NCBI RefSeq assembly: GCF_010131535.1
Contig: NZ_WUBS01000007.1
Coordinates: 62,001-126,000, forward strand
Length of the DNA stretch: 64,000 bases
Direction of reading: 5' to 3'
Source: Acerihabitans arboris
GTDB taxonomy: Bacteria; Pseudomonadota; Gammaproteobacteria; Enterobacterales; Enterobacteriaceae
The position numbers and the translations under genes were made by a program. The notes below the pieces were generated by a model. The model was given only the letters and a program-made list of their open reading frames with translations, was not told the DNA's origin and searched no databases. Positions 4,875 to 17,381 of this stretch are shown here, piece after piece (position 1 is the stretch's first letter; each line of letters begins with the position of its first letter).

Positions 4875-5774
4875 TTATTGGATAAAATTCTTGAACTCCC
4901 GCAAAAAAATGCCCATGCCGGGATTGGCGTTTTTGTTGTCCCAGACCAGCTCCAGGTTAAACCAGCAATCCTCCTCGGCAATATCCACCAGCACGCAATT
5001 ATCCCCCAGCAGATACCCCCGATGCCGGGGCATCAGCAGCGCCGCCTGTTTATTGAACTCCAGGTTGAAACAGCATGTCTTCAGGTTGGGATATTCCCGG
5101 GCCAGGGCGAACTCGACGCCGTGGCCGGTTAAAAACTGGGTGCTGTAGGCCTCGGACAAGGCAAACGCCTGGGGATCCACGCGAATAATCGGCCAGTCGC
5201 CGATCTCGCGCAGCGTTACCCTGGCGCGATCGGCCAGGGGATGCTGTTTATTAAACGCCACGCACAGCGGATCGGTCTGAAAGGATAAGGTACTAAACCG
5301 GGGATCATGCGCCATAAAGTTGGGCCGGATCAGGAAGCCAAAATCGCAGATATGGCTATCGAGCAGCGCCAAGGCCTCATCCAGCTCGCTGTCGCGGCAC
5401 TCAACCGCAATGTCGCCATGCGATTGATGAAACCGGTTCAGGAAGCTGATAAGAAAGGAATGGATGGCTTCCCCCAAAAACGCGATTGCCAGCCGGTGGC
5501 GACCCTTGCCGCAGAACGCGTGCATAACCGCCAGCGAGGATTCATACTGCGTAATGATCTTGCGCGCTTCCCCGGCAAACAATTTCCCCGCCGTGGTCAG
5601 TTCGACCTTGTGCGTATCACGCCTGAGCAGCGCCACGCCCAACCTGTCTTCCAGATATTTTATATGGCGGCTTAACACCGGTTGCGTCACATTCATCATT
5701 TGCGCCGTCTTGCTGAAATTCAACACTTGCGATAAAACAATAAATTCGTTAATCAAGTGTATTTTCATACTCAT
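4875..5774 (-). CDS. LysR family transcriptional regulator
   Basis: A 299-residue LysR-type protein. The N-terminal winged helix-turn-helix (FIVLSQVLNFSKTAQMMNVT then QPVLSRHIKYLEDRLG) covers residues 8-65, followed by a two-lobed substrate-binding-like effector domain. Two in-frame ATGs lie 6 nt apart (5774 and 5768); AGAG is better spaced for the second. It is convergent with the LacI gene and has the PAS-sigma54 regulator divergent from it across a 400-bp AT-rich gap. No enzyme gene is directly next to it, so the target is unclear; it may act on the divergent regulator. Confidence 0.87.
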   Translation of the reverse strand: MSMKIHLINEFIVLSQVLNFSKTAQMMNVTQPVLSRHIKYLEDRLGVALLRRDTHKVELTTAGKLFAGEARKIITQYESSLAVMHAFCGKGRHRLAIAFLGEAIHSFLISFLNRFHQSHGDIAVECRDSELDEALALLDSHICDFGFLIRPNFMAHDPRFSTLSFQTDPLCVAFNKQHPLADRARVTLREIGDWPIIRVDPQAFALSEAYSTQFLTGHGVEFALAREYPNLKTCCFNLEFNKQAALLMPRHRGYLLGDNCVLVDIAEEDCWFNLELVWDNKNANPGMGIFLREFKNFIQ

Positions 5775-6199
5775 TCTCTTTCGATATTCATTTTACAGTA
5801 AAGCGCGGTTTAATGAACGATGATATCAAGGCGCCGGCGGACAAACTGTGCGAAGTATCAAAAGGCGGGAACTCAAAACACCAATATTATTATTTTTGCA
5901 TAACAGGAATTGAAATAAACATAAACCAAGCCCCCGCCTTTAATGTAATTATTTCGTTAAACAAATAATTTCTCTCCACACTTTTTCACTAAAACGTGAT
6001 ATCGGCTGTTTAATGTGTGATTGATTTCACATTATCGGCAATTTCTTTTATTTATAACAACGGAAATCACGCAATGTTGCATCCTTATGATGCATTATTG
6101 TATTGGTCTTGCCGACTAACTCTTGCTATTTTCGTTGAATGCCCTTAGCCGCTCGGCGCTTGGAAAATAGTGTTTGTATTGCGCGTTATGGAGGATACA
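5775..6199. promoter_or_regulatory. AT-rich divergent intergenic region with a perfect CRP-type site at 6016-6031
   Basis: This 425-bp gap between the LysR gene and the PAS-sigma54 regulator is clearly richer in A+T than its surroundings. It contains TGTGA-TTGATT-TCACA at 6016-6031, a perfect match to the CRP half-site consensus, about 170 bp upstream of the plus-strand regulator start. Expression of that regulator, or of the divergent LysR gene, is therefore probably under catabolite control. I see no other clear element and no gene here. Confidence 0.6.
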
Positions 6200-7660
6200 A
6201 TGAGCCAGGAACATCTTCTTGATAAAGACTCGATAGACTTTAAGAAAATCGTCGATAATCTAGAATGCCCGGTCTATATCACCAATTCCACCGGCGTCAC
6301 CAAATATGTTAATAAAGCGTACATCCGGGAAAATCCGCTAATCAATCCTGCCGATATCATCGGCCGGTCGGTAGAGGATATTATTCAAGAAGGTAAATAT
6401 TTTAACAAATCCATTACACGCGAGGTCATCAATAGCAAAAAGGAGGCGATAGGATTTTTTGCCCATCACCTATTGCCGGATAAAATGGCTTTTGTCTCCG
6501 GCAGGCCGGTGCTCGACGATGAGAATGAAATTGAACATGTGGTATCAATCCTGTATGCGCAATCCTTTTTCCGCCGGCTGGAAGCACATTTTAACTATCC
6601 CATTTATTCCTTTGACTCATACCGGAGCTTATTACTCAAAAATCATGCTCCTTGCCTGGATCCCTTTGCCAATATGATCGGCACCAGCAAATGCATCGAA
6701 GCATTAAAATGGATTTTGCTCAAAGCGGCCAAAACCGACGCCACCATCCTGATCCAGGGCGAGTCCGGCACCGGCAAAGAAGTCGCGGCGACCAACATCC
6801 AGAACATCAGCCTGCGGGCCGGCAAGCCTTTTATCAAGATTAACTGTGCGGCCATACCGGCCAACCTGATCGAGAGCGAGCTGTTCGGATACGAAAAAGG
6901 CGCGTTTACCGGCGCCGCCGTGGGCAGGGCCGGTTTTTTTGAGCAGGCGAACGGCGGTACCATTTTTTTAGATGAAATCGGCGATTTGCCTTTTGATGCC
7001 CAGGCTAAACTGTTGCGCGTTTTGCAGCAAAAAGAGATCCAGCGCCTGGGCGGGAATAAATTAATCAAGCTCGATATTCGCGTGATTGCCGCGACCAATT
7101 CCAATTTACGTGAAAAAATAGTCAATAAGGAATTCCGCGAGGACCTTTATTATCGGCTGAACCTGATTCCTGTTTATCTTGCGCCACTGCGGGAAAGAAA
7201 AATTGACATTCCATTATTGGTGGAGTTTTTTTGCCATAGGTTTGACGCTATCTATAACCGGATTATCAGATTCGAGGGGCCGGCGCTTAATGCGTTACAA
7301 TATTACGATTGGCCGGGAAATATTCGCGAGCTGGAAAACTTTCTTGAATACCTGTATATCTGCTCCGACGAAAATATCGTTCCCGACGATGTGATCAACA
7401 CCCTGCTGACGCAAAAATACCTCCCGCCGGAAGAGAACCTCAAGGAAACGTTGGTGGAAAACTTCTGCCATGGTGAAATAGAAAACAATAAATACCTGAA
7501 AGACAGCATGTTGCAAATTGAACGTAAGCTCCTGCAGCTGGCGTTGGATAAATATAAAACCACCTACAATATGGCGGTTGCCATGGGCGTTTCCCAACCG
7601 ACGGTGGTCAGGAAAATGCACTCCTTAGGCATCGGCCACAAGAGTCATACCCCGGCATGA
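6200..7660 (+). CDS. PAS domain sigma54-dependent transcriptional activator
   Basis: An enhancer-binding activator of sigma54 RNA polymerase, 486 residues. GGAGG (6190-6194) lies 5 nt before the ATG at 6200, which decides this start over an upstream frame. Residues about 10-115 form a PAS sensor ([20 protein letters not shown]). The AAA+ domain (about 155-395) has Walker A GESGTGKE, the sigma54-contacting GAFTGA loop, Walker [14 protein letters not shown], and [11 protein letters not shown] Fis-type helix-turn-helix ([16 protein letters not shown]) ends the protein. There is no receiver domain, so the PAS domain probably senses a small ligand or redox state, as in TyrR- or PrpR-like regulators. 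It is convergent with the porin remnant and reductase module at 7.8-13.6 kb, upstream of which a -24/-12 match is found; that module is the likely target. Confidence 0.92.
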
Positions 7661-8450: not shown

Positions 8451-10361
8451 TTATTTCCCCAAGGCATACCTGGCGGCGCTTTCGCCGGCGATACGGCCGG
8501 AGTTATAGGCAAACCCCAGGGCCAGCCCCTGATACGGCGGGTATGAGTTATAGAAGCCGGAGGCATTATTACCGGTCGCATACAGGCCGCGGACCGGATG
8601 TGAGTCAATATTCAGGGCTTCGAGATTTTCATTAACCCTAATACCGCCGATGGAGCTTAAATTGACCACCCGCGCCTTGAACGCGAAAAACGGACCTTGA
8701 TTGACGGCATAGACCAAATTAGCCGCGCTTTTACCAAATCGCCCGTCTTTTTTAGTGCCGATCGCTTGGTTATAGGCGGTTATCGACGCCTCCAGGACGG
8801 CGGCATCCATACCGGCGTTTTTGGCCAATTCCCCAAGGGTAGCGCCTTTGAACACCTGTCCGGAAGCCAGGCTGTCATTGGCCAGCTTCACGAAGTCGCC
8901 GGTGCCCTCCGGATTAGGGGCGCCGGCGCCGGAAAGCTCAAAGGGCTGTTTCCCTTTGGTAAAGGCATTTAAGGTATTTTCATCGACGATAATATAATAA
9001 TCGCCGCCGACGGCGTAGGCGGCATTAGCCCAATAAGCGGTATCATAAACCAATTCTTCATTGGCAAAACGGGTACCGGCCATATCCACCCACATCAGCG
9101 GCGTTTTTATCAGCCTGATCAGCAAGTTGCTATTAAAACCGTCGGCTTTGGTGCCGCTTAGCGCCAGGAGTTCGGCGGCGTGGATCAGCGCGGACTGCTG
9201 CCCTTTGGCGGCGCCGGCATCCCAGGCCATCTTGACGCCCTCGCCCCTATTCGGCCATGCCAGGGAGGACATATTCGGCACGTTCATTTGCTGCTTGACC
9301 CTATTGACGTCGCCGCCGTAGCCGCCGGTCGCCAACACCACCGATTTGGCATGGATGGTCAGGGTACCGCCGTCCTCTTTTAACGCCACCAGGCCGTTAA
9401 CCGTGCCATCAGCGCCTTTCAGCAGCGATTGCCCGGTCACCCCGGTCATCAACTCCCCATGCATTTTCTGGAAGTTATCATACATATTCTTGAACGCTTC
9501 GCCGCTGTCCTTATAACGATGGTACATGCGCCATTTAATCGGATCATCGTTCTGCGCCTGCTGGACATTATGATCGGATAAATACAGTTTCACGCCATAT
9601 TTAGTCAACCAGTCAATGGTCGAGGGTGATTCCTCGATAATTCTCCGGGTCAGCGGACCGTTTGACAGATAATGGTCATATTCCATCAGCCGGTTGAACA
9701 GATCGTCCGTCTTAAACTCTAGTTTTTTCGCTTTTAACATCGGCGAACGCACCGCGAACAGCCCGCTGGCCAGTTTGCCCGCGCCGCCGACGGAAGGAGA
9801 CCGCTCGACAACCAGCACCCTGGCGCCCGCCTCGGCCGAAGCCAGCGCCGCGGCGGTGCCGGACGCGCCGGCGCCCACCACGACCACATCAACCGTTTTT
9901 TCTTCGTTTACGCCGTTTTTAACCACCTTGACCGCTTTTAACGCCTCGACGTCGACGCCGGATTGGGCAATCGCCGCCTGCGCCGCGCGCAGCACGGCGT
10001 TGCTGGTCACCGTCGCGCCGGTGACGCCGTCAATGGCCAGGCTTTGATTCCTGACGATTTCCTTCGCCAGTTTCGGCGCCGCCTGGCCGCCCAGCTCCGG
10101 GGTTTCCTTTGGCGCGTCCACCTTGATATCCTTGATGACGCCGGCGTCATCCACGGTGGCGGTGACGGTGACATCGCCGCCGATGCCCTGCTCCACCGCC
10201 GAATAGCTGCCCGCGGTGATCTTGGCGGCGCTTTTCTGCGCGGCGTCGCCGGCGCCGCCGTCTGCGCCGGCATACCCCGCCGAAAAAGCCAACGTCAGCG
10301 ATAACATGATCAGTGACCATTTCTTGCTGCCTGCATACCTGTTTAGCGCCTTTATCGACAT
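8451..10361 (-). CDS. Exported FMN/FAD-containing reductase (flavocytochrome c-like, heme-free)
   Basis: Predicted periplasmic flavin reductase, 636 residues. AAAGGTG fits the ATG at 10361 better than the GTG 9 nt upstream. A Sec signal peptide (hydrophobic run about 15-28, AxA-type site) is followed by an FMN_bind domain with the ApbE flavinylation motif DGVTGATVTS (about 111-120). An FAD_binding_2 domain with VVGAGASGTAAA (about 162) runs to the end. There is no cysteine at all, so no heme c, as in UrdA-type reductases. Residues that bind fumarate in Shewanella Fcc3 are replaced: the Arg402 position reads Tyr (NEELVYD), His504 reads Ser (NLSSIGG) and Arg544 lies in SYPPYQGLALG. It is therefore unlikely to be a fumarate reductase; the substrate is unknown. 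It lies 182 bp after the NrfC/NrfD/MFS genes, which may feed it electrons from quinol. Confidence 0.85.
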   Translation of the reverse strand: MSIKALNRYAGSKKWSLIMLSLTLAFSAGYAGADGGAGDAAQKSAAKITAGSYSAVEQGIGGDVTVTATVDDAGVIKDIKVDAPKETPELGGQAAPKLAKEIVRNQSLAIDGVTGATVTSNAVLRAAQAAIAQSGVDVEALKAVKVVKNGVNEEKTVDVVVVGAGASGTAAALASAEAGARVLVVERSPSVGGAGKLASGLFAVRSPMLKAKKLEFKTDDLFNRLMEYDHYLSNGPLTRRIIEESPSTIDWLTKYGVKLYLSDHNVQQAQNDDPIKWRMYHRYKDSGEAFKNMYDNFQKMHGELMTGVTGQSLLKGADGTVNGLVALKEDGGTLTIHAKSVVLATGGYGGDVNRVKQQMNVPNMSSLAWPNRGEGVKMAWDAGAAKGQQSALIHAAELLALSGTKADGFNSNLLIRLIKTPLMWVDMAGTRFANEELVYDTAYWANAAYAVGGDYYIIVDENTLNAFTKGKQPFELSGAGAPNPEGTGDFVKLANDSLASGQVFKGATLGELAKNAGMDAAVLEASITAYNQAIGTKKDGRFGKSAANLVYAVNQGPFFAFKARVVNLSSIGGIRVNENLEALNIDSHPVRGLYATGNNASGFYNSYPPYQGLALGFAYNSGRIAGESAARYALGK

Positions 10362-10543
10362 ATTTTTCACCTTTCGGTTTTGTGGTTCTCAATAAAAAAA
10401 GTTATCTGCGTTCGCAGGAATGCCATCCGGACATCCGGCAGATAAAACTCATCCTGTTTGTATACATTGGGCAGGTTTACCAACCATAAGGTATTGCCTG
10501 ATATCATCAGGATATAAATAAACTTATGAAAATAGTGATACCT

Positions 10544-11953
10544 TTAGTTAATGACCTGTTTTGGATCCGGTAGTTTCTCGACCCCCTGGATAAACCCATC
10601 GCCGTCGTTATTTTCCAGCCTCAGGAAAATAAAACAGCACAGCAATAAACCCAGCCCCATTAATGAAAACAAGGCATGGTACGCGTCCATCCCGCCCAGG
10701 CTGCCGGCATCCCTTAAATAGCGTAGTGACGAAAAAGTAAAGGCCACGCTGATAATGACCGACAATAATTGGCTCAGCGTCAGGAGGCTGTTGCCGGTAT
10801 TATAGGTATCGTCGGTCAGGTCGCTGAATGTCAGCGTATTCATTGCGGCATAGAGCACCGAGCTCAGCATGCCGACGACCATGATCAACAGCGCGATTAA
10901 TGATAACGACGCGGTCAATAACGGACAGGTCAGGGAATACAGGGCCGCCGCCGTCAGGCCCGTGGTCGCCAGCAGCAGGCGGCGATATCCCAGCCGCGCC
11001 AATATCCGGCGCAGTAAAAAACGGGCCAGCAGCGCGCCCAAGGCAAACGACAGCATGATGTAGCTCACCGCCGGCGGCGGGTAATTGAATTCCAGCTGCA
11101 GCATCAGGGATAACGCCAGGGGAACCGAGGCCAGGAAGATCCGCACGCCAATGTTGCCGGCGATGCCGATGGCAAAGGTGCGGTGGCGGAATAATGACCA
11201 CGAAAATAACGGATCGGGCGTGGTTATATAATACTTTCTATAAAGATGGACCAATAACAGGGCCAGGGCAAACGACGCCATTATCCAGACGGCCGGAACA
11301 CCCGGCCTGCCCATGCCATAGAAGCCCAGCATCAGCAGGATGATGGCGGGGGTCATCAGCAAAAAGCCCCTGAGGTCAAAATCGCCGCTGTCCCGCATCT
11401 TTATCGGCATATGCGCCCTGGCCAGGAAAAAACAGGCCAGGCAGAGGGGAAGGTTGATCAGGAAAATCAGGCGCCAGGAAAAATGCATCACCAACAGGCC
11501 GCTGACCAGCGGCCCGGCCAGGGTGCCCAGCAGGCCGAGCAATGTCATCTTGTTCAGCGCGGCCAGTTTCCGCCGCGGCGCGATGCTTTTAAGCATGCCC
11601 ACCCTAACGGCCGGCAACATTAATCCACCGCCGATGCCCTGGATAACGCGCGACGCGCTGATGGCGAACAGCGAACCGGACGCGGCGCAAAGACAGGAAC
11701 CGGCGGCAAACAACGCCAGGGCCAACAGATAGGTTTGCCGGTAGCCGAAGGTATCGTTCAGCCAGCCGCTGACCGGGGTGAACATCACCACCGTCAGCAA
11801 ATAGGCGCCGACCAGGATGCCCATGTTTAATATGGATTGGTGTAACGATACCGCCATGGTGGGAATGGCCAGATACAGCATGGTGGTATCCATTGACTGC
11901 ATAAAGAAGGTGATTGAGGCAATGGACAGCAGTGGTGTGGCGTTGTTCATCAT
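10544..11953 (-). CDS. MFS transporter, DHA2-like
   Basis: A 469-residue major facilitator with about 14 hydrophobic helices. Motif-A-like GWLNDTFGYRQTYLLALALF and SRVIQGIGGGLMLPAVRVG are typical of the DHA2 (EmrB/QacA-like) group. Translation starts at ATG 11953 (or 11950), overlapping the stop of the NrfD-like gene in an ATGATG arrangement, so it is translationally coupled; the longer open frame upstream is not needed. Placement between the electron-transfer genes and the exported flavoprotein suggests it moves the electron acceptor or its reduced product. DHA2 proteins are usually exporters, so product efflux is the more likely role, but direction and substrate are inference. Confidence 0.83.
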   Translation of the reverse strand: MMNNATPLLSIASITFFMQSMDTTMLYLAIPTMAVSLHQSILNMGILVGAYLLTVVMFTPVSGWLNDTFGYRQTYLLALALFAAGSCLCAASGSLFAISASRVIQGIGGGLMLPAVRVGMLKSIAPRRKLAALNKMTLLGLLGTLAGPLVSGLLVMHFSWRLIFLINLPLCLACFFLARAHMPIKMRDSGDFDLRGFLLMTPAIILLMLGFYGMGRPGVPAVWIMASFALALLLVHLYRKYYITTPDPLFSWSLFRHRTFAIGIAGNIGVRIFLASVPLALSLMLQLEFNYPPPAVSYIMLSFALGALLARFLLRRILARLGYRRLLLATTGLTAAALYSLTCPLLTASLSLIALLIMVVGMLSSVLYAAMNTLTFSDLTDDTYNTGNSLLTLSQLLSVIISVAFTFSSLRYLRDAGSLGGMDAYHALFSLMGLGLLLCCFIFLRLENNDGDGFIQGVEKLPDPKQVIN

Positions 11954-12876
11954 GCCGTCACCATCTGGCCGGCGTACAGGATAAACATTCTTAATAGCAA
12001 CACGCTGCACAAGCCTATCCCCGCGGTGGCCAGCAGAAAGCCCCGGCGATGCCTGAAGCGGCTGTTGCACAGCAGGTTAAGCAACAGCGGCAACACGATG
12101 CCGCAGCCAACGATGCCGGCCCAGAATATCGCGCCCCAAAAGCCCTGCAACGCGGTCAGCGCGGCCAGGTGTTTTTTCTCCCCGCCGTAAAACAGGCCGA
12201 GGAAAAACAGCATCAGCAGCGACAGCTCCACCCAGATCAAGGGCTTTTCAAACCGCTGCAGGAGCGGCAGGGACGACGGCGCCGGCCCGTTAAAGAATAT
12301 GCCGCGGCATAAGGTGGCCACGGCCAGCGCCGAGGCCAGTCCGGAGGTTAAAAACAGTAGCGGCAGGATAGGATTATTCAGCAACGGATAGGATTTCAGC
12401 GCCAGCAGCAGGCAACCGGTATAAACGCCCAACAGTATCGCCAGCGCGGCCACCAGGGTGTCCAACAGCACGTTAAACCGGCCGATATACCGCGCCGCCC
12501 GCGCGTACCGGCCGTTGCCGGTAAAATTTTTATGATAAATATTCAGGATCCAGAGCATCAGGATCACCATGTAGACCTGGAACAGCATGACCCCCAGCGA
12601 CATCACCGAACGAGGGTTGTAGTAGATCATGAGATACCAGAACGTCCAGGGGCGGGCCAGGTGAAAGATCAGGATAGCCAGCCCCAGCATCACGGCCAGG
12701 GGGGCGATGACCGTGGCCGCCCTGATAATGATGTCGTCGGCGACTTCCGCCGGGGGAATACGCCGCTTGAGCAGCACCGCGATAATCACCATGCCGGACG
12801 ATATCCCCACCAGCAGCAGGTAAATGGCGATCGGCCAGTCCCATACGAGGGTGGCGAAATGAAACGCATTGTTCAT
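11950..12876 (-). CDS. NrfD/PsrC-like membrane subunit (quinol oxidation)
   Basis: A 308-residue integral membrane protein with about eight helices, of the polysulfide-reductase NrfD family (PsrC, NrfD, TtrC). The N-terminus VWDWPIAIYLLLVGISSGM is the family's usual first helix, and LARPWTFWYLMIYYNPRSVM follows. Members take electrons from menaquinol or ubiquinol and hand them to a partner four-cluster ferredoxin. Start and stop overlap both neighbours (ATGA), linking it to the NrfC-like gene upstream and the MFS gene downstream. It has no heme ligand pattern beyond scattered histidines. Confidence 0.85.
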   Translation of the reverse strand: MNNAFHFATLVWDWPIAIYLLLVGISSGMVIIAVLLKRRIPPAEVADDIIIRAATVIAPLAVMLGLAILIFHLARPWTFWYLMIYYNPRSVMSLGVMLFQVYMVILMLWILNIYHKNFTGNGRYARAARYIGRFNVLLDTLVAALAILLGVYTGCLLLALKSYPLLNNPILPLLFLTSGLASALAVATLCRGIFFNGPAPSSLPLLQRFEKPLIWVELSLLMLFFLGLFYGGEKKHLAALTALQGFWGAIFWAGIVGCGIVLPLLLNLLCNSRFRHRRGFLLATAGIGLCSVLLLRMFILYAGQMVTA

Positions 12877-13559
12877 TGCGGGATCTCTCCGAACTTGCCC
12901 GGGATGTGGTACAGCTTGGGCGCGGTGCCAAGATGGATTTTTGAGCGGTATACCGTCCTGCCGGCAATGGCCTTGGCAATCTCGCTATCGGGATCGTCCA
13001 GGTTGCCGAAGGTTAACGCCTTGGTCGGGCACACCGCGACACAGGCCGGCAGCCTGCCTTTCGCCAGGTTGGTATCCCGGCAGAAATTGCATTTATCGGC
13101 GGTTTTGGTCACCGGATGGATAAAGCGCACATGGTAAGGACAGGCGGCCAGGCAATAGCGGCATCCCACGCAGCGATTGGCATCAACGTCGACGATGCCG
13201 GTCTTGGCATCTTTATACGACGCGCCGGTAGGACAAACCTCGACGCAGGGCGGGTTATCACAATGCTGGCAGGATTTACGCGCAAACTGTTTTTGGGTTT
13301 TGCCCTGATCCTGCCAGGTGCCGTTATCCACGATATCCACCCGGGTAACCCCGGCCGGCACATTATTGATGTTATGACAGGCCACCACGCAGGCTTTGCA
13401 GCCGATGCACCGGGTTTCGTCGTGGAGCATGCCGTAGCGAACGTTATCAATGACAATGGTTTGCCGGGATAACGTCCCGGCCAAAAAACGATGGACGGGA
13501 TAGGTGACCAATATCGCCCCGCCTATCCCCCGAATAAAACTACGACGTGAACAGCTCAT
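12873..13559 (-). CDS. Tat-exported NrfC-like 4Fe-4S ferredoxin subunit
   Basis: A 228-residue periplasmic iron-sulfur protein. The N-terminus carries the twin-arginine signal SRRSFIRGIGG followed by a hydrophobic stretch. Four cysteine groups follow: CIGCKACVVACH, CQHCDNPPCVEVCP, CVGCRYCLAACP and CNFC...CVAVCP, enough for four [4Fe-4S] clusters as in NrfC, PsrB and TtrB. AAGGGG lies 6 nt before the ATG. It is the first gene of the module and overlaps the NrfD-like gene. It should relay electrons from NrfD to a periplasmic terminal reductase. No molybdopterin subunit or cytochrome c552 is nearby, leaving the FMN/FAD flavoprotein at 8451 as the only visible acceptor. Confidence 0.9.
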   Translation of the reverse strand: MSCSRRSFIRGIGGAILVTYPVHRFLAGTLSRQTIVIDNVRYGMLHDETRCIGCKACVVACHNINNVPAGVTRVDIVDNGTWQDQGKTQKQFARKSCQHCDNPPCVEVCPTGASYKDAKTGIVDVDANRCVGCRYCLAACPYHVRFIHPVTKTADKCNFCRDTNLAKGRLPACVAVCPTKALTFGNLDDPDSEIAKAIAGRTVYRSKIHLGTAPKLYHIPGKFGEIPQ

Positions 13560-13686
13560 GCCAGCCCCTTGCTAAATAATTCAAAAACAGCACGTAATTT
13601 TTAACCATCCTTGCCGGATTTAATCATTCTTCTTCATCACGACGTCTGCCGTCTGAGGCTATTAAACCGGCGGCCGTAAAGCTAAA

Positions 13687-13702
13687 AGCATAAAGGGTGC
13701 CA
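13687..13702 (-). promoter_or_regulatory. Candidate sigma54 (-24/-12) promoter for the reductase module
   Basis: Read on the minus strand, TGGCACCCTTTATGCT matches the consensus TGGCAC-N5-TTGCW at all key positions except the first T of TTGC, with exact GG-to-GC spacing. The predicted start would lie about 12 bp downstream, leaving a leader of roughly 115 nt before the NrfC-like start at 13559. A sigma54 activator is encoded at 6200-7660, which supports the call. It was found by eye, so chance cannot be excluded. Confidence 0.5.
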
Positions 13703-14147
13703 ATATGGCGATAACCAGGATAAGCGGGCCGGGTTACTATCATGACCTCATATTCAATAGGCCTTTCAGCCGGGAGGACGTCGAAAACAACCCCGCCAAT
13801 CGCGTGCCGCGTCCCCTGCGCGGCGCTATTTTTTATCGCGGTAAAATACATCCGTGAATTATTCCGATGCAAAAATGCATCGCGTCACGCCGGCGGCGCG
13901 GTTTTATCCATGCCGTGGGAAATAAATACGCGGGTAAGCGGGAGAAATATCCCATTAAATAGAGGAAATCAGGTATGACCGGCCATATTGCCGAAAAAGC
14001 CGGGATGGCACAATTTATGCTTTATCCCTGCGCCCGCCGGCGCGTGGCGGCGTATTTCACAGGCGCCTCCCGGTCGCGGGCCGCGGCGATGATCCGCCGT
14101 ACCGGCGGCAAATTACGCTCAATACTTTACGGCATAAGGTGACGGCA
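13703..14147. other. Intergenic stretch with no supported gene
   Basis: About 445 bp between the module promoter and a small open frame. Short open frames exist on both strands but have neither a good ribosome-binding site nor recognisable protein character. Any upstream activating sequence for the sigma54 regulator would be expected here, but I could not pick out a convincing repeated palindrome. Confidence 0.5.
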
Positions 14148-14450: not shown

Positions 14451-15857
14451 ATGGTTGATCATTCGACAGAGAACCATTTAACCGCGGAGGAGCCGGATAC
14501 GCTCCAGCGTAACCTGAACAACCGCCATATCCAGCTGATCGCCATCGGCGGCGCCATCGGCACCGGCCTGTTCATGGGATCCGGCAAAACCATCAGCCTG
14601 GCCGGGCCCTCGATTATCTTTGTGTATCTGATCATCGGTTTTATGCTGTTTTTCGTGATGCGCGCCATGGGGGAGCTACTGCTCTCCAACCTGGAATATA
14701 AATCCTTCAGCGATTTCGCCGCCGACCTGCTCGGCCCGTGGGCGGGTTATTTTACCGGCTGGACCTACTGGTTTTGCTGGGTGGTCACCGGCATTGCCGA
14801 CGTGGTGGCCATCAGCGCTTATTTCCAGCTGTGGTTTCCCGGATTCTCCGTCTGGATGGGCGCCCTGCTGTGCCTGGCGGTGTTCTTTTCACTGAATATC
14901 GCCACCGTCAGGCTGTTCGGCGAGCTGGAATTCTGGTTTGCCATCGTGAAAATCATTGCGATTGTCGCCCTGATCGCCACCGGCATCGCGCTGGCGGCGG
15001 TGCACTACCCTTCCCCGGCCGGCGGCACGGCGTCGCTATCGAATATCTGGCAGCACGGCGGCCTGTTTCCCCAGGGACCCAGCGGCTTTTTTGCCGGTTT
15101 CCAAATCGCGGTTTTCGCCTTTGTCGGCATTGAACTGGTCGGCACCACCGCGGCGGAAACCCACAATCCGCATAAGGTGTTGCCGCGCGCCATCAACGCC
15201 ATTCCCATCCGGGTGATTATGTTTTATGTGCTGGCGCTGATGGCCATCATGATGGTGACGCCCTGGGATAGCGTGGTGCCGGAGCGTAGCCCGTTTGTTG
15301 AAATGTTTATGCTGACCGGCCTGCCGGCCGCCGCCAGCGTGGTGAATTTCGTGGTATTGACGTCCGCGGCCTCCTCGGCCAACAGCGGTATGTTTTCCAC
15401 CAGCCGCATGCTGTACGGCCTGGCGGAACAGGGCGTGGCCCACCGGCGCTTTGCCCTGCTGTCCCGGCGCGCCGTGCCGACCAACGGCCTGATGTTCTCC
15501 TGCCTGTGCCTGGCGATCGGGGTGGCGCTTATCTACCTGATCCCCAACGTCATGACGGTGTTTACCCTGGTGACCACGGTTTCCGCCATTCTGTTCATGT
15601 TTGTCTGGACGATGATCCTTTGTTCCTACCTCGCTTACCGTAAACAGCATCCGCAGCGTCACCGCGAGTCGCACTTTAAAATGCCGCTGGGCAAGGTGAT
15701 GTGCTGGGTGTGCATGGCGTTCTTTCTTTTTGTGCTGGCGTTGCTGACGCTGCGGGAAGATACCCGCCAGGCCCTGCTGGCCACGCCGCTGTGGTTTGCG
15801 ATCCTAGCCGTCGGCTGGCGGCGGCGCGGCAGAAAAATGGCCGGTCGGCGGCGATAG
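14451..15857 (+). CDS. cycA: D-serine/D-alanine/glycine:H+ symporter CycA
   Basis: A 468-residue amino acid permease of the APC superfamily with 12 helices, reading nearly like E. coli CycA over long stretches: RHIQLIAIGGAIGTGLFMGS, EYKSFSDFAADLLGPWAGYF and VNFVVLTSAASSANSGMFST. It imports D-alanine, D-serine and glycine with protons across the inner membrane. The start MVDH corresponds to the MVDQ start of E. coli; a Shine-Dalgarno sequence is weak (AGGA about 13 nt upstream). It is a single gene convergent with an amino-acid ABC ATPase. Its place beside a long run of D-peptide genes (19.7-38.2 kb) may be functional, since D-Ala would be the product of those peptidases. The tail after about 455 is basic and differs from E. 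coli. Confidence 0.95.
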   Translation: MVDHSTENHLTAEEPDTLQRNLNNRHIQLIAIGGAIGTGLFMGSGKTISLAGPSIIFVYLIIGFMLFFVMRAMGELLLSNLEYKSFSDFAADLLGPWAGYFTGWTYWFCWVVTGIADVVAISAYFQLWFPGFSVWMGALLCLAVFFSLNIATVRLFGELEFWFAIVKIIAIVALIATGIALAAVHYPSPAGGTASLSNIWQHGGLFPQGPSGFFAGFQIAVFAFVGIELVGTTAAETHNPHKVLPRAINAIPIRVIMFYVLALMAIMMVTPWDSVVPERSPFVEMFMLTGLPAAASVVNFVVLTSAASSANSGMFSTSRMLYGLAEQGVAHRRFALLSRRAVPTNGLMFSCLCLAIGVALIYLIPNVMTVFTLVTTVSAILFMFVWTMILCSYLAYRKQHPQRHRESHFKMPLGKVMCWVCMAFFLFVLALLTLREDTRQALLATPLWFAILAVGWRRRGRKMAGRRR

Positions 15858-15902: not shown

Positions 15903-16640
15903 TCAATGCTGGCGCAAATCGGCCAGGAAGCGCTGCGCGCGCGGGTGCCGGGGCGCGGTAAAAAAGGCCGCCGGCGCGGCTTTTTCGAGAATTCGCCCTT
16001 CATCCATGAACCAGATGGTATCGGCCACCTCGCGGGCAAGGTTCATCTCATGGGTGACGCACATCATGGTCATGCCTTCGTTGGCCAGGCCCCGCATGAC
16101 ATTGAGCACTTCGCCGACCATTTCCGGGTCCAGCGCGCTGGTGGGCTCATCGAACAACATCACCGGGGGGTTCATCGCCAGCGCGCGGGCAATGGCCACC
16201 CGCTGTTGTTGACCGCCGGAAAGCTGGGCCGGATAGGCGTTGGCTTTATTGGCCAGCCCCACCCGGTCGAGCAGCTCGACCGCATGCCGTCGCGCCTGCG
16301 AACGCTTCACTCCCAGCACCTTGGCCGGCGACAGCATAATATTGTCGATAACGGAAATATGCGGGAATAAGTTAAAGCTCTGGAACACAAAACCGATGCG
16401 GGTACGTAGTTGATTAAGGCGGGTGCTGGTGCCGTGGATATCGACGCCGTCGAACAGGATTTGCCCTTGCCCGATAGGCTCCAGGCGATTGACCGTACGG
16501 CTCAGCGTGGACTTGCCGGAGCCGGACGGCCCGCAGATCACCACCACTTCCCCGCTTTTGATCTCCGCGCTCAGGTCGGTCAAGGCTTGGTATTCGCCAT
16601 ACCATTTATTGACCTGGTTAAACAAAATCATCGGGATCAT
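15903..16640 (-). CDS. Polar amino acid ABC transporter ATP-binding protein (GlnQ/GltL type)
   Basis: A 245-residue ATPase: Walker [11 protein letters not shown]-loop [18 protein letters not shown], signature [16 protein letters not shown], Walker [17 protein letters not shown] and switch His in CVTHEM. These are diagnostic of the polar amino acid uptake family (HisP, GlnQ, GltL). GAGG lies 7 nt before the ATG at 16640. The permease gene directly upstream survives only as a C-terminal fragment and no binding protein gene is nearby, so this intact ATPase appears orphaned. It could still serve another permease or be on the way to loss. Confidence 0.9.
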
Positions 16641-16657
16641 CGAAAGCCTCTGTGTTA

Positions 16658-17033
<376 letters not shown>

Positions 17034-17035
<2 letters not shown>

Positions 17036-17381
17036 CGGTCATTTGATTCGCGGTTTTTCAGGTAGCGGCGGGATGTATTTTGACTATCTTGCCCTGGCTT
17101 ATATTTCCCTGGCCGACGTCACCGCCCTGAGTTACACCGCCCCGTTGTTTACCGTTATCCTGGCCGCCTGCCTGCTGGGCGAGGTGGTGCGCCCTTCGCG
17201 CTGGGCGGGCGTGGTCGTCGGCCTGCTCGGCATCATGATCATGCTCTCCCCCATCTCGGCGGCGCGGAACATGACGCACCGGGCGGCGAAGGCCTCCTCT
17301 GGGCCGACCGGCGGCGCAGGTTTTACCTGGATCTCGACGGCAATCCCAAATGATCGCCATGACACGGCTGCCGATGGTTAA
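17034..17381 (+). pseudogene. Fragment of an EamA/DMT-family transporter
   Basis: The frame reads HLIRGFSGSGGMYFDYLALA, then YISLADVTALSYTAPLFTVI, GEVVRPSRWAGVVVGLLGIM and IML, matching the second half of the first EamA domain of drug/metabolite transporters (family length about 290 residues). The N-terminus and the entire second EamA domain are missing; after about 17280 the frame loses family character. It abuts the permease remnant at about 17035, so a deletion has fused two unrelated genes. Confidence 0.75.

What the first reader, a model, noticed from the sequence alone, without database searches (positions are those of the whole stretch)
8451..13702. Heme-free FMN/FAD reductase coupled to an NrfC/NrfD pair and an MFS carrier under a sigma54 activator
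The sequence shows a Tat-exported four-cluster ferredoxin, an NrfD-type membrane protein, an MFS transporter (all three overlapping) and a Sec-exported flavoprotein with an FMN attachment motif and no cysteine. Known periplasmic reductases of this flavin family usually receive electrons through cytochromes c or CymA. NrfC/NrfD usually feed molybdoenzymes or cytochrome c nitrite reductase. Here the flavoprotein is the only visible electron acceptor, suggesting quinol to NrfD to FeS to covalent FMN to FAD. The PAS-sigma54 regulator, promoter match and porin remnant complete an inducible respiratory unit for an unknown organic acceptor.
Basis: partly seen in the sequence, partly recalled or inferred. 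Interest (0 to 1): 0.75.

Follow-up and report, generated by a model that had tools for sequence, protein, structure and literature searches.

The report
NrfCD-fed covalent-flavin redox module
Some plant-linked relatives of E. coli appear to wire a membrane unit borrowed from nitrite respiration to a haem-free, flavin-only enzyme in the periplasm, probably acting on plant phenolics or cyclic ketones, a wiring we did not find described.

Summary
On the minus strand lie a Tat-type four-cluster ferredoxin (NrfC), NrfD, an MFS carrier (each overlapping the next by 4 bases) and a cysteine-free flavoprotein with FMN_bind and FAD_binding_2 domains. A sigma-54 site precedes NrfC and a sigma-54 activator lies nearby; the porin is a C-terminal remnant. 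The pairing is not accidental: this genome's only two NrfD genes both sit beside such flavoproteins, and in 198 sampled genomes 11 of 14 related flavoprotein genes have NrfD within 5 kb (about 0.07 expected). NrfA has no match in the genome. Elsewhere the flavoprotein is split into FMN_bind and FAD genes beside NrfC-NrfD-MFS, and Kosakonia sacchari adds ApbE. This supports quinol, NrfD, NrfC, covalent FMN, FAD. Two corrections: the Arg and His residues of fumarate reductase are missing and a Tyr-Gly loop recalls ketone dehydrogenases, so a fumarate-like enoate is unlikely; and fused-type relatives cluster with a beta-diketone hydrolase, BKACE, CoA transferase and thiolases, pointing to a phenolic or cyclic-ketone substrate. 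Electron direction is unproven. NrfD is absent from 13 of 13 Gram-positive genomes searched that carry distant homologues. New variant of a known kind.

The parts
12873..13559 (-). NrfC-like four-cluster ferredoxin with twin-arginine start
   Evidence: PF13247 2.1e-24 and other Fer4 models; TIGR03149 329.9 bits (cut-off 377.6); 17 Cys, 4 CxxC
11950..12876 (-). NrfD-type membrane quinol/quinone subunit
   Evidence: PF03916 4.5e-75; TIGR03148 362.7 bits over cut-off 347.6
10544..11953 (-). MFS carrier, DHA2/MdtD-like, recurrent neighbour of NrfCD
   Evidence: PF07690 7.2e-48; best NCBIfam MdtD 248 bits, below cut-off
8451..10370 (-). Exported flavoprotein: signal-like N-terminus, FMN_bind (residues 62-134, DGVTGAT), FAD_binding_2 (161-611), no Cys
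   Evidence: AlphaFold2 mean pLDDT 85.2
13687..13702 (-). Sigma-54 type -24/-12 site, 143 bases before NrfC
   Evidence: 1 mismatch to TGGCACNNNNNTTGCW
6170..7660 (+). Sigma-54-dependent activator
   Evidence: PF00158 1.9e-68, HTH_50; relatives beside the module in L030 (partial at the stretch's end), L031, L063, L064
7826..8374 (-). C-terminal remnant of an OprB-type porin (pseudogene)
   Evidence: tblastn with intact porins of L030 and L063, 42-43% over their last 183 residues; PF04966 1.5e-05
4875..5774 (-). LysR regulator, paralogue of the one beside the second module; its part in this module is not shown
   Evidence: PF03466, PF00126; 461.6 bits to L030 15568-16464

Best explanation
A haem-free periplasmic respiratory module. 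NrfD oxidises quinol in the membrane and NrfC (Tat-exported, four FeS clusters) carries the electrons. They pass to the FMN that ApbE attaches covalently to the flavoprotein's N-terminal domain, then to the FAD domain, which reduces the C=C bond of an organic substrate. The substrate is probably not a fumarate-like acid but a phenolic or a ring ketone/enone of plant origin. The MFS carrier moves substrate or product, and the sigma-54 activator switches the operon on. Shown by sequence: the parts, their order, the recurrence and the motifs. Inferred: covalent FMN, direction of flow, substrate, carrier role.
For: Own genome: 2 NrfD genes, both beside FMN_bind-FAD flavoproteins. 11 of 14 related flavoprotein genes lie within 5 kb of NrfD, about 0.07 expected (one search scored at most 6 candidates a genome). 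In split layouts FMN_bind and FAD are separate genes beside NrfC-NrfD-MFS (FMN_bind ORFs seen in 8 loci; Pfam-checked in 2), a fusion/fission pair linking the two domains. NrfA: 0 matches in own genome; the 3 of 14 genomes with NrfA carry a separate NrfD beside it. ApbE: 1 in own genome, and one inside the Kosakonia sacchari cluster, 5.4e-82. Sigma-54 sites with at most 1 mismatch in 5 of 5 examined loci with the activator gene, none before the scanned genes of 11 loci without it. Vinyl phenol reductase is the best-scoring NCBIfam model for 6 of 6 flavoproteins tested, though below its cut-off. In the split loci and the Gram-positive loci L071-L095 none of the reference catabolic proteins matched, as expected of stand-alone acceptor modules.
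Against: Direction is not shown. The fused type often co-clusters with a catabolic set (beta-diketone hydrolase, BKACE, CoA transferase, thiolases), and the active-site loop resembles dehydrogenases, so it might oxidise its substrate. Ketosteroid and cyclohexanone dehydrogenases superpose with lower rmsd than the flavocytochromes. 5 Brenneria loci lack adjacent NrfD and 13 of 13 searched Gram-positive genomes lack any. 3 of 14 flavoproteins have no NrfD within 5 kb. No complex was modelled. The window copy lacks an intact porin.
Confidence: 0.62

Rival explanations
1. The same chain run backwards: a periplasmic dehydrogenase of the ketosteroid/cyclohexanone dehydrogenase type that oxidises an alicyclic ketone and passes electrons FAD to FMN to NrfC to NrfD to quinone, as first step of a catabolic pathway that opens the ring.
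For: Fused-type relatives sit with a beta-diketone hydrolase (6-oxocamphor hydrolase 2.6e-31), BKACE, CoA transferase and thiolases. Residues aligned with the fumarate-type Arg/His differ, and a Tyr lies 4-6 residues before an invariant Gly in 31 of 31 rows, like Tyr570/Gly574 of cyclohexanone dehydrogenase (PMC10966990, passages). Cyclohexanone and ketosteroid dehydrogenases match the model at Z 36.1-37.7 with rmsd 3.5-4.5 over 429-448 residues.
Against: Flavocytochrome c and urocanate reductase score Z 38.1-40.4, though with rmsd 4.5-7.8 over 429-474 residues. The extracytosolic fumarate-reductase-like enzymes named in the passages seen of PMC8238504 are reductases. The window locus and the split operons show none of the reference catabolic genes. 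The best family model is a reductase.
Confidence: 0.22
2. NrfC/NrfD serve another enzyme (nitrite reductase or a molybdoenzyme) and lie beside the flavoprotein by chance or common regulation only.
For: NrfD scores as the nitrite-reductase subunit. 11 molybdopterin-family matches exist in the genome.
Against: No NrfA match in the genome. None of the 11 molybdopterin matches lies on the two contigs with NrfD. Adjacency 11 of 14 against about 0.07 expected. In two Brenneria genomes NrfC-NrfD-MFS stands without a local reductase gene while a fused flavoprotein is present elsewhere.
Confidence: 0.05
3. The window copy is a decaying, non-functional relative of the second module on contig C23.
For: Its porin is truncated; a fuller second module exists in the same genome; a related genome (G028) carries broken copies. 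Its NrfC, NrfD and MFS are closer to the C23 paralogues (73, 64 and 59%) than to Kosakonia (64, 50 and 39%).
Against: NrfC, NrfD, MFS, flavoprotein and activator are all full-length open frames, with a sigma-54 site. Its flavoprotein is closer to Kosakonia (58%) than to its own paralogue (52%), so the two modules are not recent copies of each other.
Confidence: 0.08

Closest known systems
Flavinylated fumarate-reductase-like reductases (urocanate reductase UrdA of Shewanella, FrdA of Listeria)
   Same: FMN_bind domain with D-x-x-[S/T]-G-A-[S/T] motif (motif as in PMC12052999, passage) joined to a FAD_binding_2 enzyme, apparently exported
   Different: Electrons apparently from NrfC/NrfD; residues aligned with the fumarate-type Arg/His differ. 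'Nrf' has 0 occurrences in the text of PMC8238504, which surveys their membrane partners
Nrf nitrite reductase NrfABCD
   Same: NrfC and NrfD are homologues; NrfD passes its equivalog cut-off
   Different: No NrfA match in the genome; the neighbour is a flavoprotein
Vinyl phenol reductase VprA (Lactobacillus plantarum; PMC10295242 passages)
   Same: Best-scoring NCBIfam family for the FAD part; the known enzyme reduces a phenolic vinyl group
   Different: Far below cut-off (259 against 600 bits); NrfCD as partner of VprA is not something I know of (recalled, not tested)
Cyclohexanone and 3-ketosteroid dehydrogenases
   Same: Same fold; a Tyr before a Gly where fumarate reductase has its substrate Arg; relatives linked to beta-diketone ring opening
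   Different: As recalled, those enzymes have no FMN_bind domain and no NrfCD; dehydrogenation is not shown here
Anaerobic phloroglucinol pathway of Clostridium scatologenes (PMC10470551 passages)
   Same: BKACE, CoA transferase and thiolase set; BKACE of the C23 cluster lacks the amine-binding Glu of the lysine-pathway enzyme
   Different: Crotonase-type beta-diketone hydrolase rather than the cyclase-family DPGC; BKACE has Val where the clostridial lyase has Trp; no phloroglucinol reductase or SDR noticed among the cluster's ORFs (not searched for)

Membership tests
Nrf cytochrome c nitrite reductase system | NrfA catalytic cytochrome c552 | tested here: not met
   PF02335: 0 matches in own genome; 3 of 14 genomes match
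Nrf cytochrome c nitrite reductase system | NrfD equivalog score (TIGR03148) | tested here: met
   362.7 bits against 347.6
Nrf cytochrome c nitrite reductase system | NrfC equivalog score (TIGR03149) | tested here: not met
   329.9 bits against 377.6
Flavinylated fumarate-reductase-like oxidoreductases | FMN_bind domain with flavinylation motif plus FAD_binding_2 domain | tested here: met
   PF04205 57.9 bits (cut-off 22), PF00890 149.4 (cut-off 20.4), DGVTGAT
Flavinylated fumarate-reductase-like oxidoreductases | ApbE flavin transferase in the genome | tested here: met
   1 match, 4.4e-82; one within the K. sacchari cluster
Flavinylated fumarate-reductase-like oxidoreductases | FMN covalently bound | not testable with these tools
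   needs protein
Fumarate or urocanate reductase proper | Catalytic Arg (Fcc3 Arg402) and carboxylate-binding Arg/His (Arg544, His504) | tested here: not met
   Sequence alignment puts Tyr442, Pro612 and Ser572 there. Numbers and roles of the Fcc3 residues are recalled; UrdA mutants R411A and R560A seen in PMC7921117 passages
Flavocytochrome c | Haem-binding CxxCH domain | tested here: not met
   0 Cys in 639 residues; TIGR01813 144.9 bits against 285.45
Vinyl phenol reductase VprA | Equivalog score NF053717 | tested here: not met
   259.2 bits against 600
Complex iron-sulfur molybdoenzymes (Psr/Ttr type) | Molybdopterin catalytic subunit in the gene cluster | tested here: not met
   11 PF00384 matches in the genome, none on contigs C54 or C23
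Cyclohexanone/3-ketosteroid dehydrogenases | Tyr/Gly pair holding the ketone near the C-terminus | tested here: inconclusive
   Tyr 4-6 residues before invariant G615 in 31 of 31 rows; no residue-level alignment to those enzymes was available
Clostridial phloroglucinol pathway | Triacetate acetoacetate-lyase type BKACE | tested here: inconclusive
   C23 BKACE has Val aligned with the Glu of 2Y7D that binds the amine; the clostridial lyase has Trp (PMC10470551 passages)
Clostridial phloroglucinol pathway | Phloroglucinol reductase and DPG cyclohydrolase genes | not tested
   not searched for, in the clusters or genome-wide

The most novel reading that the evidence does not exclude
Plant-associated enterobacteria couple two halves of one new polyphenol metabolism. 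An NrfCD-fed, covalently flavinylated periplasmic enzyme uses a phenolic or cyclic enone as terminal electron acceptor. Its product, a 1,3-diketone tautomer of the ring (possibly the trione form of phloroglucinol), is imported and opened without further redox steps by a crotonase-type beta-diketone hydrolase. BKACE, CoA transferase and thiolases then yield acetyl-CoA.
Probability: 0.17. Interest if true: 0.82.

Novelty: new variant of a known kind. Interest (0 to 1): 0.63.

Why it matters
NrfC/NrfD are usually treated as parts of nitrite or molybdoenzyme respiration, and flavinylated reductases as fed by cytochromes or by the Gram-positive extracellular transfer chain. A recurring NrfCD to FMN to FAD chain would be a haem-free and molybdenum-free respiratory route. 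It would explain NrfCD genes in bacteria with no NrfA (11 of the 14 genomes searched), and would give a concrete, testable way for plant-associated enterobacteria to respire or break down plant phenolics.

Tried and rejected
Fumarate-like enoate substrate: disfavoured by the differing Arg/His positions. NrfA or molybdoenzyme partner: rejected. Recent duplication of the window module: rejected, since the two modules share only 52-73% identity, the flavoprotein being closer to Kosakonia and the other three genes closer to the C23 paralogues. First genome-contig scan with a single sequence gave no relative; the second, with alignment A1, gave 43 loci. Of these 43, 21 were given to the NrfD search, and 20 were held. 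The split-type FAD protein was searched in 369 genomes drawn from the class, own genome included; only the own genome matched at 1e-90. Known carriers of the family did not appear in that draw, so it says little about the family and only that the strict match is rare outside it. Plasmids: no match at 1e-60. A 39-residue query to the PDB found nothing, so no residue-level comparison with ketosteroid dehydrogenases was made; the paper on that enzyme is not held. The sigma-54 consensus at up to 2 mismatches is no commoner than in shuffles. Literature searches aimed at NrfC/NrfD with flavinylated or fumarate-reductase-like flavoproteins: 20 of 61 papers listed; 19 of 19; 8 of 9; 15 of 6,045; too broad to test anything; 6 of 6. 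I saw titles and abstract starts only, and none suggests the pairing. PMC8238504, PMC10979944 and PMC12052999 hold 0 occurrences of 'Nrf' in the main text (passages seen). Preprint collections and most subscription papers are outside the library, so this is weak evidence of novelty. Foldseek and VIA-align do not separate reductases from dehydrogenases here.
Full report
What is there. The window holds, on the minus strand, NrfC (13559-12873), NrfD (12876-11950), an MFS carrier (11953-10544) and a flavoprotein (10370-8451). The first three overlap by 4 bases each; the flavoprotein starts 173 bases after the carrier. NrfD passes the NCBIfam cut-off for the nitrite-reductase subunit, while NrfC falls below its own. 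The flavoprotein has FMN_bind (62-134) and FAD_binding_2 (161-611) domains, the motif DGVTGAT and no cysteine. A sigma-54 activator lies at 6170-7660 on the plus strand. Between it and the flavoprotein is a porin remnant that matches only the last 183 residues of intact OprB porins.

It is not an accident of one genome. The own genome has two NrfD genes in all. The second, on contig C23, also sits beside an FMN_bind-FAD flavoprotein (52% identical to the window's), with NrfC, the MFS carrier, an intact OprB porin and a sigma-54 activator. The C23 module is 89-95% identical to that of Sodalis sp. dw_96, so the genome is probably close to that genus. Of the four FMN_bind genes in the genome, two are these flavoproteins. 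Among 198 genomes of the family, own included, 14 flavoprotein genes in 9 genomes match at 1e-60 (at most 6 candidates a genome were scored, so 14 is a lower bound). NrfD lies within 5 kb of 11 of the 14, with about 0.07 expected from random placement. The three exceptions are one Brenneria gene (G114) with NrfD 31.7 kb away, one gene in G022 with none on its contig, and a third FAD protein of the own genome 12.8 kb from NrfD.

Two layouts. In the fused layout FMN_bind and FAD are one protein: the window, own C23, Kosakonia sacchari, Sodalis sp. dw_96, one metagenome bin (L066) and five Brenneria loci, plus unnamed G014 (with an apparent frame break in its FMN domain, and NrfC not visible) and the degraded G028. 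In the split layout the order is NrfC, NrfD, MFS, FMN_bind, FAD, as separate genes, in G022, G167, G097 and G014 and in Brenneria izbisi. G048 has one such locus with its carrier in two ORFs, and one with the FAD gene in front and FMN_bind last. B. salicis has a truncated FAD gene. In G151 the FMN_bind ORF was not resolved by my ORF picker. FMN_bind was checked with Pfam for two of these small proteins. That the same two domains occur fused or split beside the same NrfC-NrfD-MFS trio argues that electrons pass between NrfC, FMN and FAD.

Brenneria is a natural test. Its five fused flavoprotein loci have no NrfCD in the fetched stretches, yet each of the four Brenneria genomes that could be searched has exactly one NrfD match. 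In two of them (L061, L106) NrfC-NrfD-MFS stands with no FMN_bind or FAD gene beside it, between the same neighbours as in split operons of other genomes. In the two others (L107, L108) the split genes are present, one truncated. This fits NrfCD serving the distant flavoprotein, but does not prove it.

Alternative partners. NrfA has no match in the own genome; it is present in 3 of 14 genomes searched, and each of those three has a separate NrfD beside NrfA. Eleven molybdopterin-family matches exist in the own genome, none on the two contigs that carry NrfD. One ApbE gene exists in the genome, and in K. sacchari an ApbE gene lies between NrfC and the LysR gene.

Results that limit the claim. 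Of 20 genomes behind named loci that could be searched, all 6 enterobacterial ones have NrfD. The 13 Gram-positive ones (12 with fused homologues at about 31-40% identity in alignment A2, or of the same groups; one with a FAD-only relative) have none, and one Desulfuromonadaceae bin has two. The flavoprotein family as a whole therefore does not depend on NrfCD. In the Gram-positive stretches L071-L095 no reference protein but the flavoprotein matched; three were listed and read by eye. In 369 genomes drawn from the class, own included, only the own genome matched the split-type FAD protein at 1e-90.

Regulation. A sigma-54 site with at most one mismatch lies within 150 bases before a gene of the module in 5 of 5 loci examined that carry the activator gene: window NrfC (143), C23 and Sodalis flavoprotein (61, both perfect), G014 carrier (52) and Kosakonia NrfC (16 before the longest ORF, whose true start may lie further in). 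The degraded L033 was not scanned. No site at up to two mismatches lies within 450 bases before the genes scanned in three of the five Brenneria loci and in eight split or NrfC-NrfD-MFS loci, whose fetched stretches show no activator gene. Across seven stretches (181,725 bases) 9 sites with at most one mismatch and the core kept occur in all.

Substrate. Against flavocytochrome c fumarate reductase, Arg402 aligns with Tyr442, His504 with Ser572 and Arg544 with Pro612. Numbers and roles of those residues are recalled; PMC7921117 (passages) lists the UrdA mutants R411A and R560A. Tyr442 is conserved in the 11 closest rows of 31, not in the distant ones. The split-type FAD protein also lacks the Arg/His at the aligned places. 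All 31 aligned homologues have a Tyr 4-6 residues before an invariant Gly; cyclohexanone dehydrogenase holds its ketone with Tyr570 and Gly574 (PMC10966990, passages). The predicted structure (mean pLDDT 85.2) matches flavocytochrome c and urocanate reductase at Z 38.1-40.4 (rmsd 4.5-7.8 over 429-474 residues) and cyclohexanone and ketosteroid dehydrogenases at Z 36.1-37.7 (rmsd 3.5-4.5 over 429-448). Vinyl phenol reductase is the best NCBIfam model for 6 of 6 flavoproteins tested, below its cut-off each time. So a carboxylate-anchored enoate is unlikely and a phenolic or ring ketone is favoured, by inference.

Pathway context. Fused-type clusters of own C23, Sodalis, Kosakonia and Brenneria carry a crotonase-family protein closest to 6-oxocamphor hydrolase and beta-diketone hydrolase, BKACE, thiolases, CoA transferase A/B, a second MFS and often a LysR gene. 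Not every gene was picked up in every locus: the hydrolase was not listed in L067, BKACE not in L067 and L068, LysR not in L068-L070, and the Kosakonia stretch ends at the first thiolase. The window locus itself and G014's fused locus show none of these in the stretches read. The C23 BKACE has Val in place of the Glu of 2Y7D that binds the amine (PMC10470551 passages). In the clostridial phloroglucinol route, BKACE, CoA transferase and thiolase follow ring opening (same passages). Split loci instead have a BD-FAE-type esterase gene nearby in two cases checked with Pfam (L057, L058) and two Brenneria loci matched by sequence (L107, L108); none was noticed in the two G048 loci. These contexts point to plant phenolics or alicyclic ketones but do not fix the reaction.

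Mechanism and confidence. I judge a quinol-driven reductase most likely (0.62) and the reverse, a quinone-linked dehydrogenase, next (0.22). Nothing here fixes the direction; NrfD-type proteins are known, from memory, to work both ways.

Novelty. Both halves are known kinds. The pairing was not seen in the listings of five literature searches of an open-access library (the fourth too broad to count), and 'Nrf' does not occur in three papers on flavinylation that I checked by term. I file it as a new variant of a known kind.

Noticed in passing
window 14006-14021 (+): A second sigma-54-like site (TGGCACAATTTATGCT, 1 mismatch) faces the amino-acid permease-like ORF at 14451-15857, divergent from the NrfC operon.
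   Followed up: no
window about 16650-17065: A stretch translating as a long AQAQ/SLSL dipeptide run (apparently a six-base repeat) beside an ABC transporter ATPase-like ORF at 15903-16640; possibly length-variable. No repeat finder was run.
   Followed up: no
L030 17207-18763 and 18811-19377: A third FAD_binding_2 protein of the own genome (518 aa, no FMN_bind match), 59% identical to the split-type enzyme, lies beside a 188-aa ORF with no Pfam or NCBIfam match at the thresholds used.
   Followed up: partly
L063 5713-19659 (Kosakonia sacchari): Compact cluster: activator, MFS, fused flavoprotein, porin, NrfD, NrfC, ApbE, LysR, beta-diketone hydrolase, BKACE, thiolase; a good laboratory candidate.
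   Followed up: partly
L033 (genome G028): Pieces of NrfD, MFS, activator and a shortened flavoprotein frame lie together, suggesting ongoing loss of the module.
   Followed up: no
L032 5109-6092, L068 6336-7334, L069 6449-7435: Brenneria clusters add a protein of the Phenol_MetA_deg family (PF13557, 1.8e-33 for L032; the others by sequence match), a hint of a phenolic substrate.
   Followed up: partly
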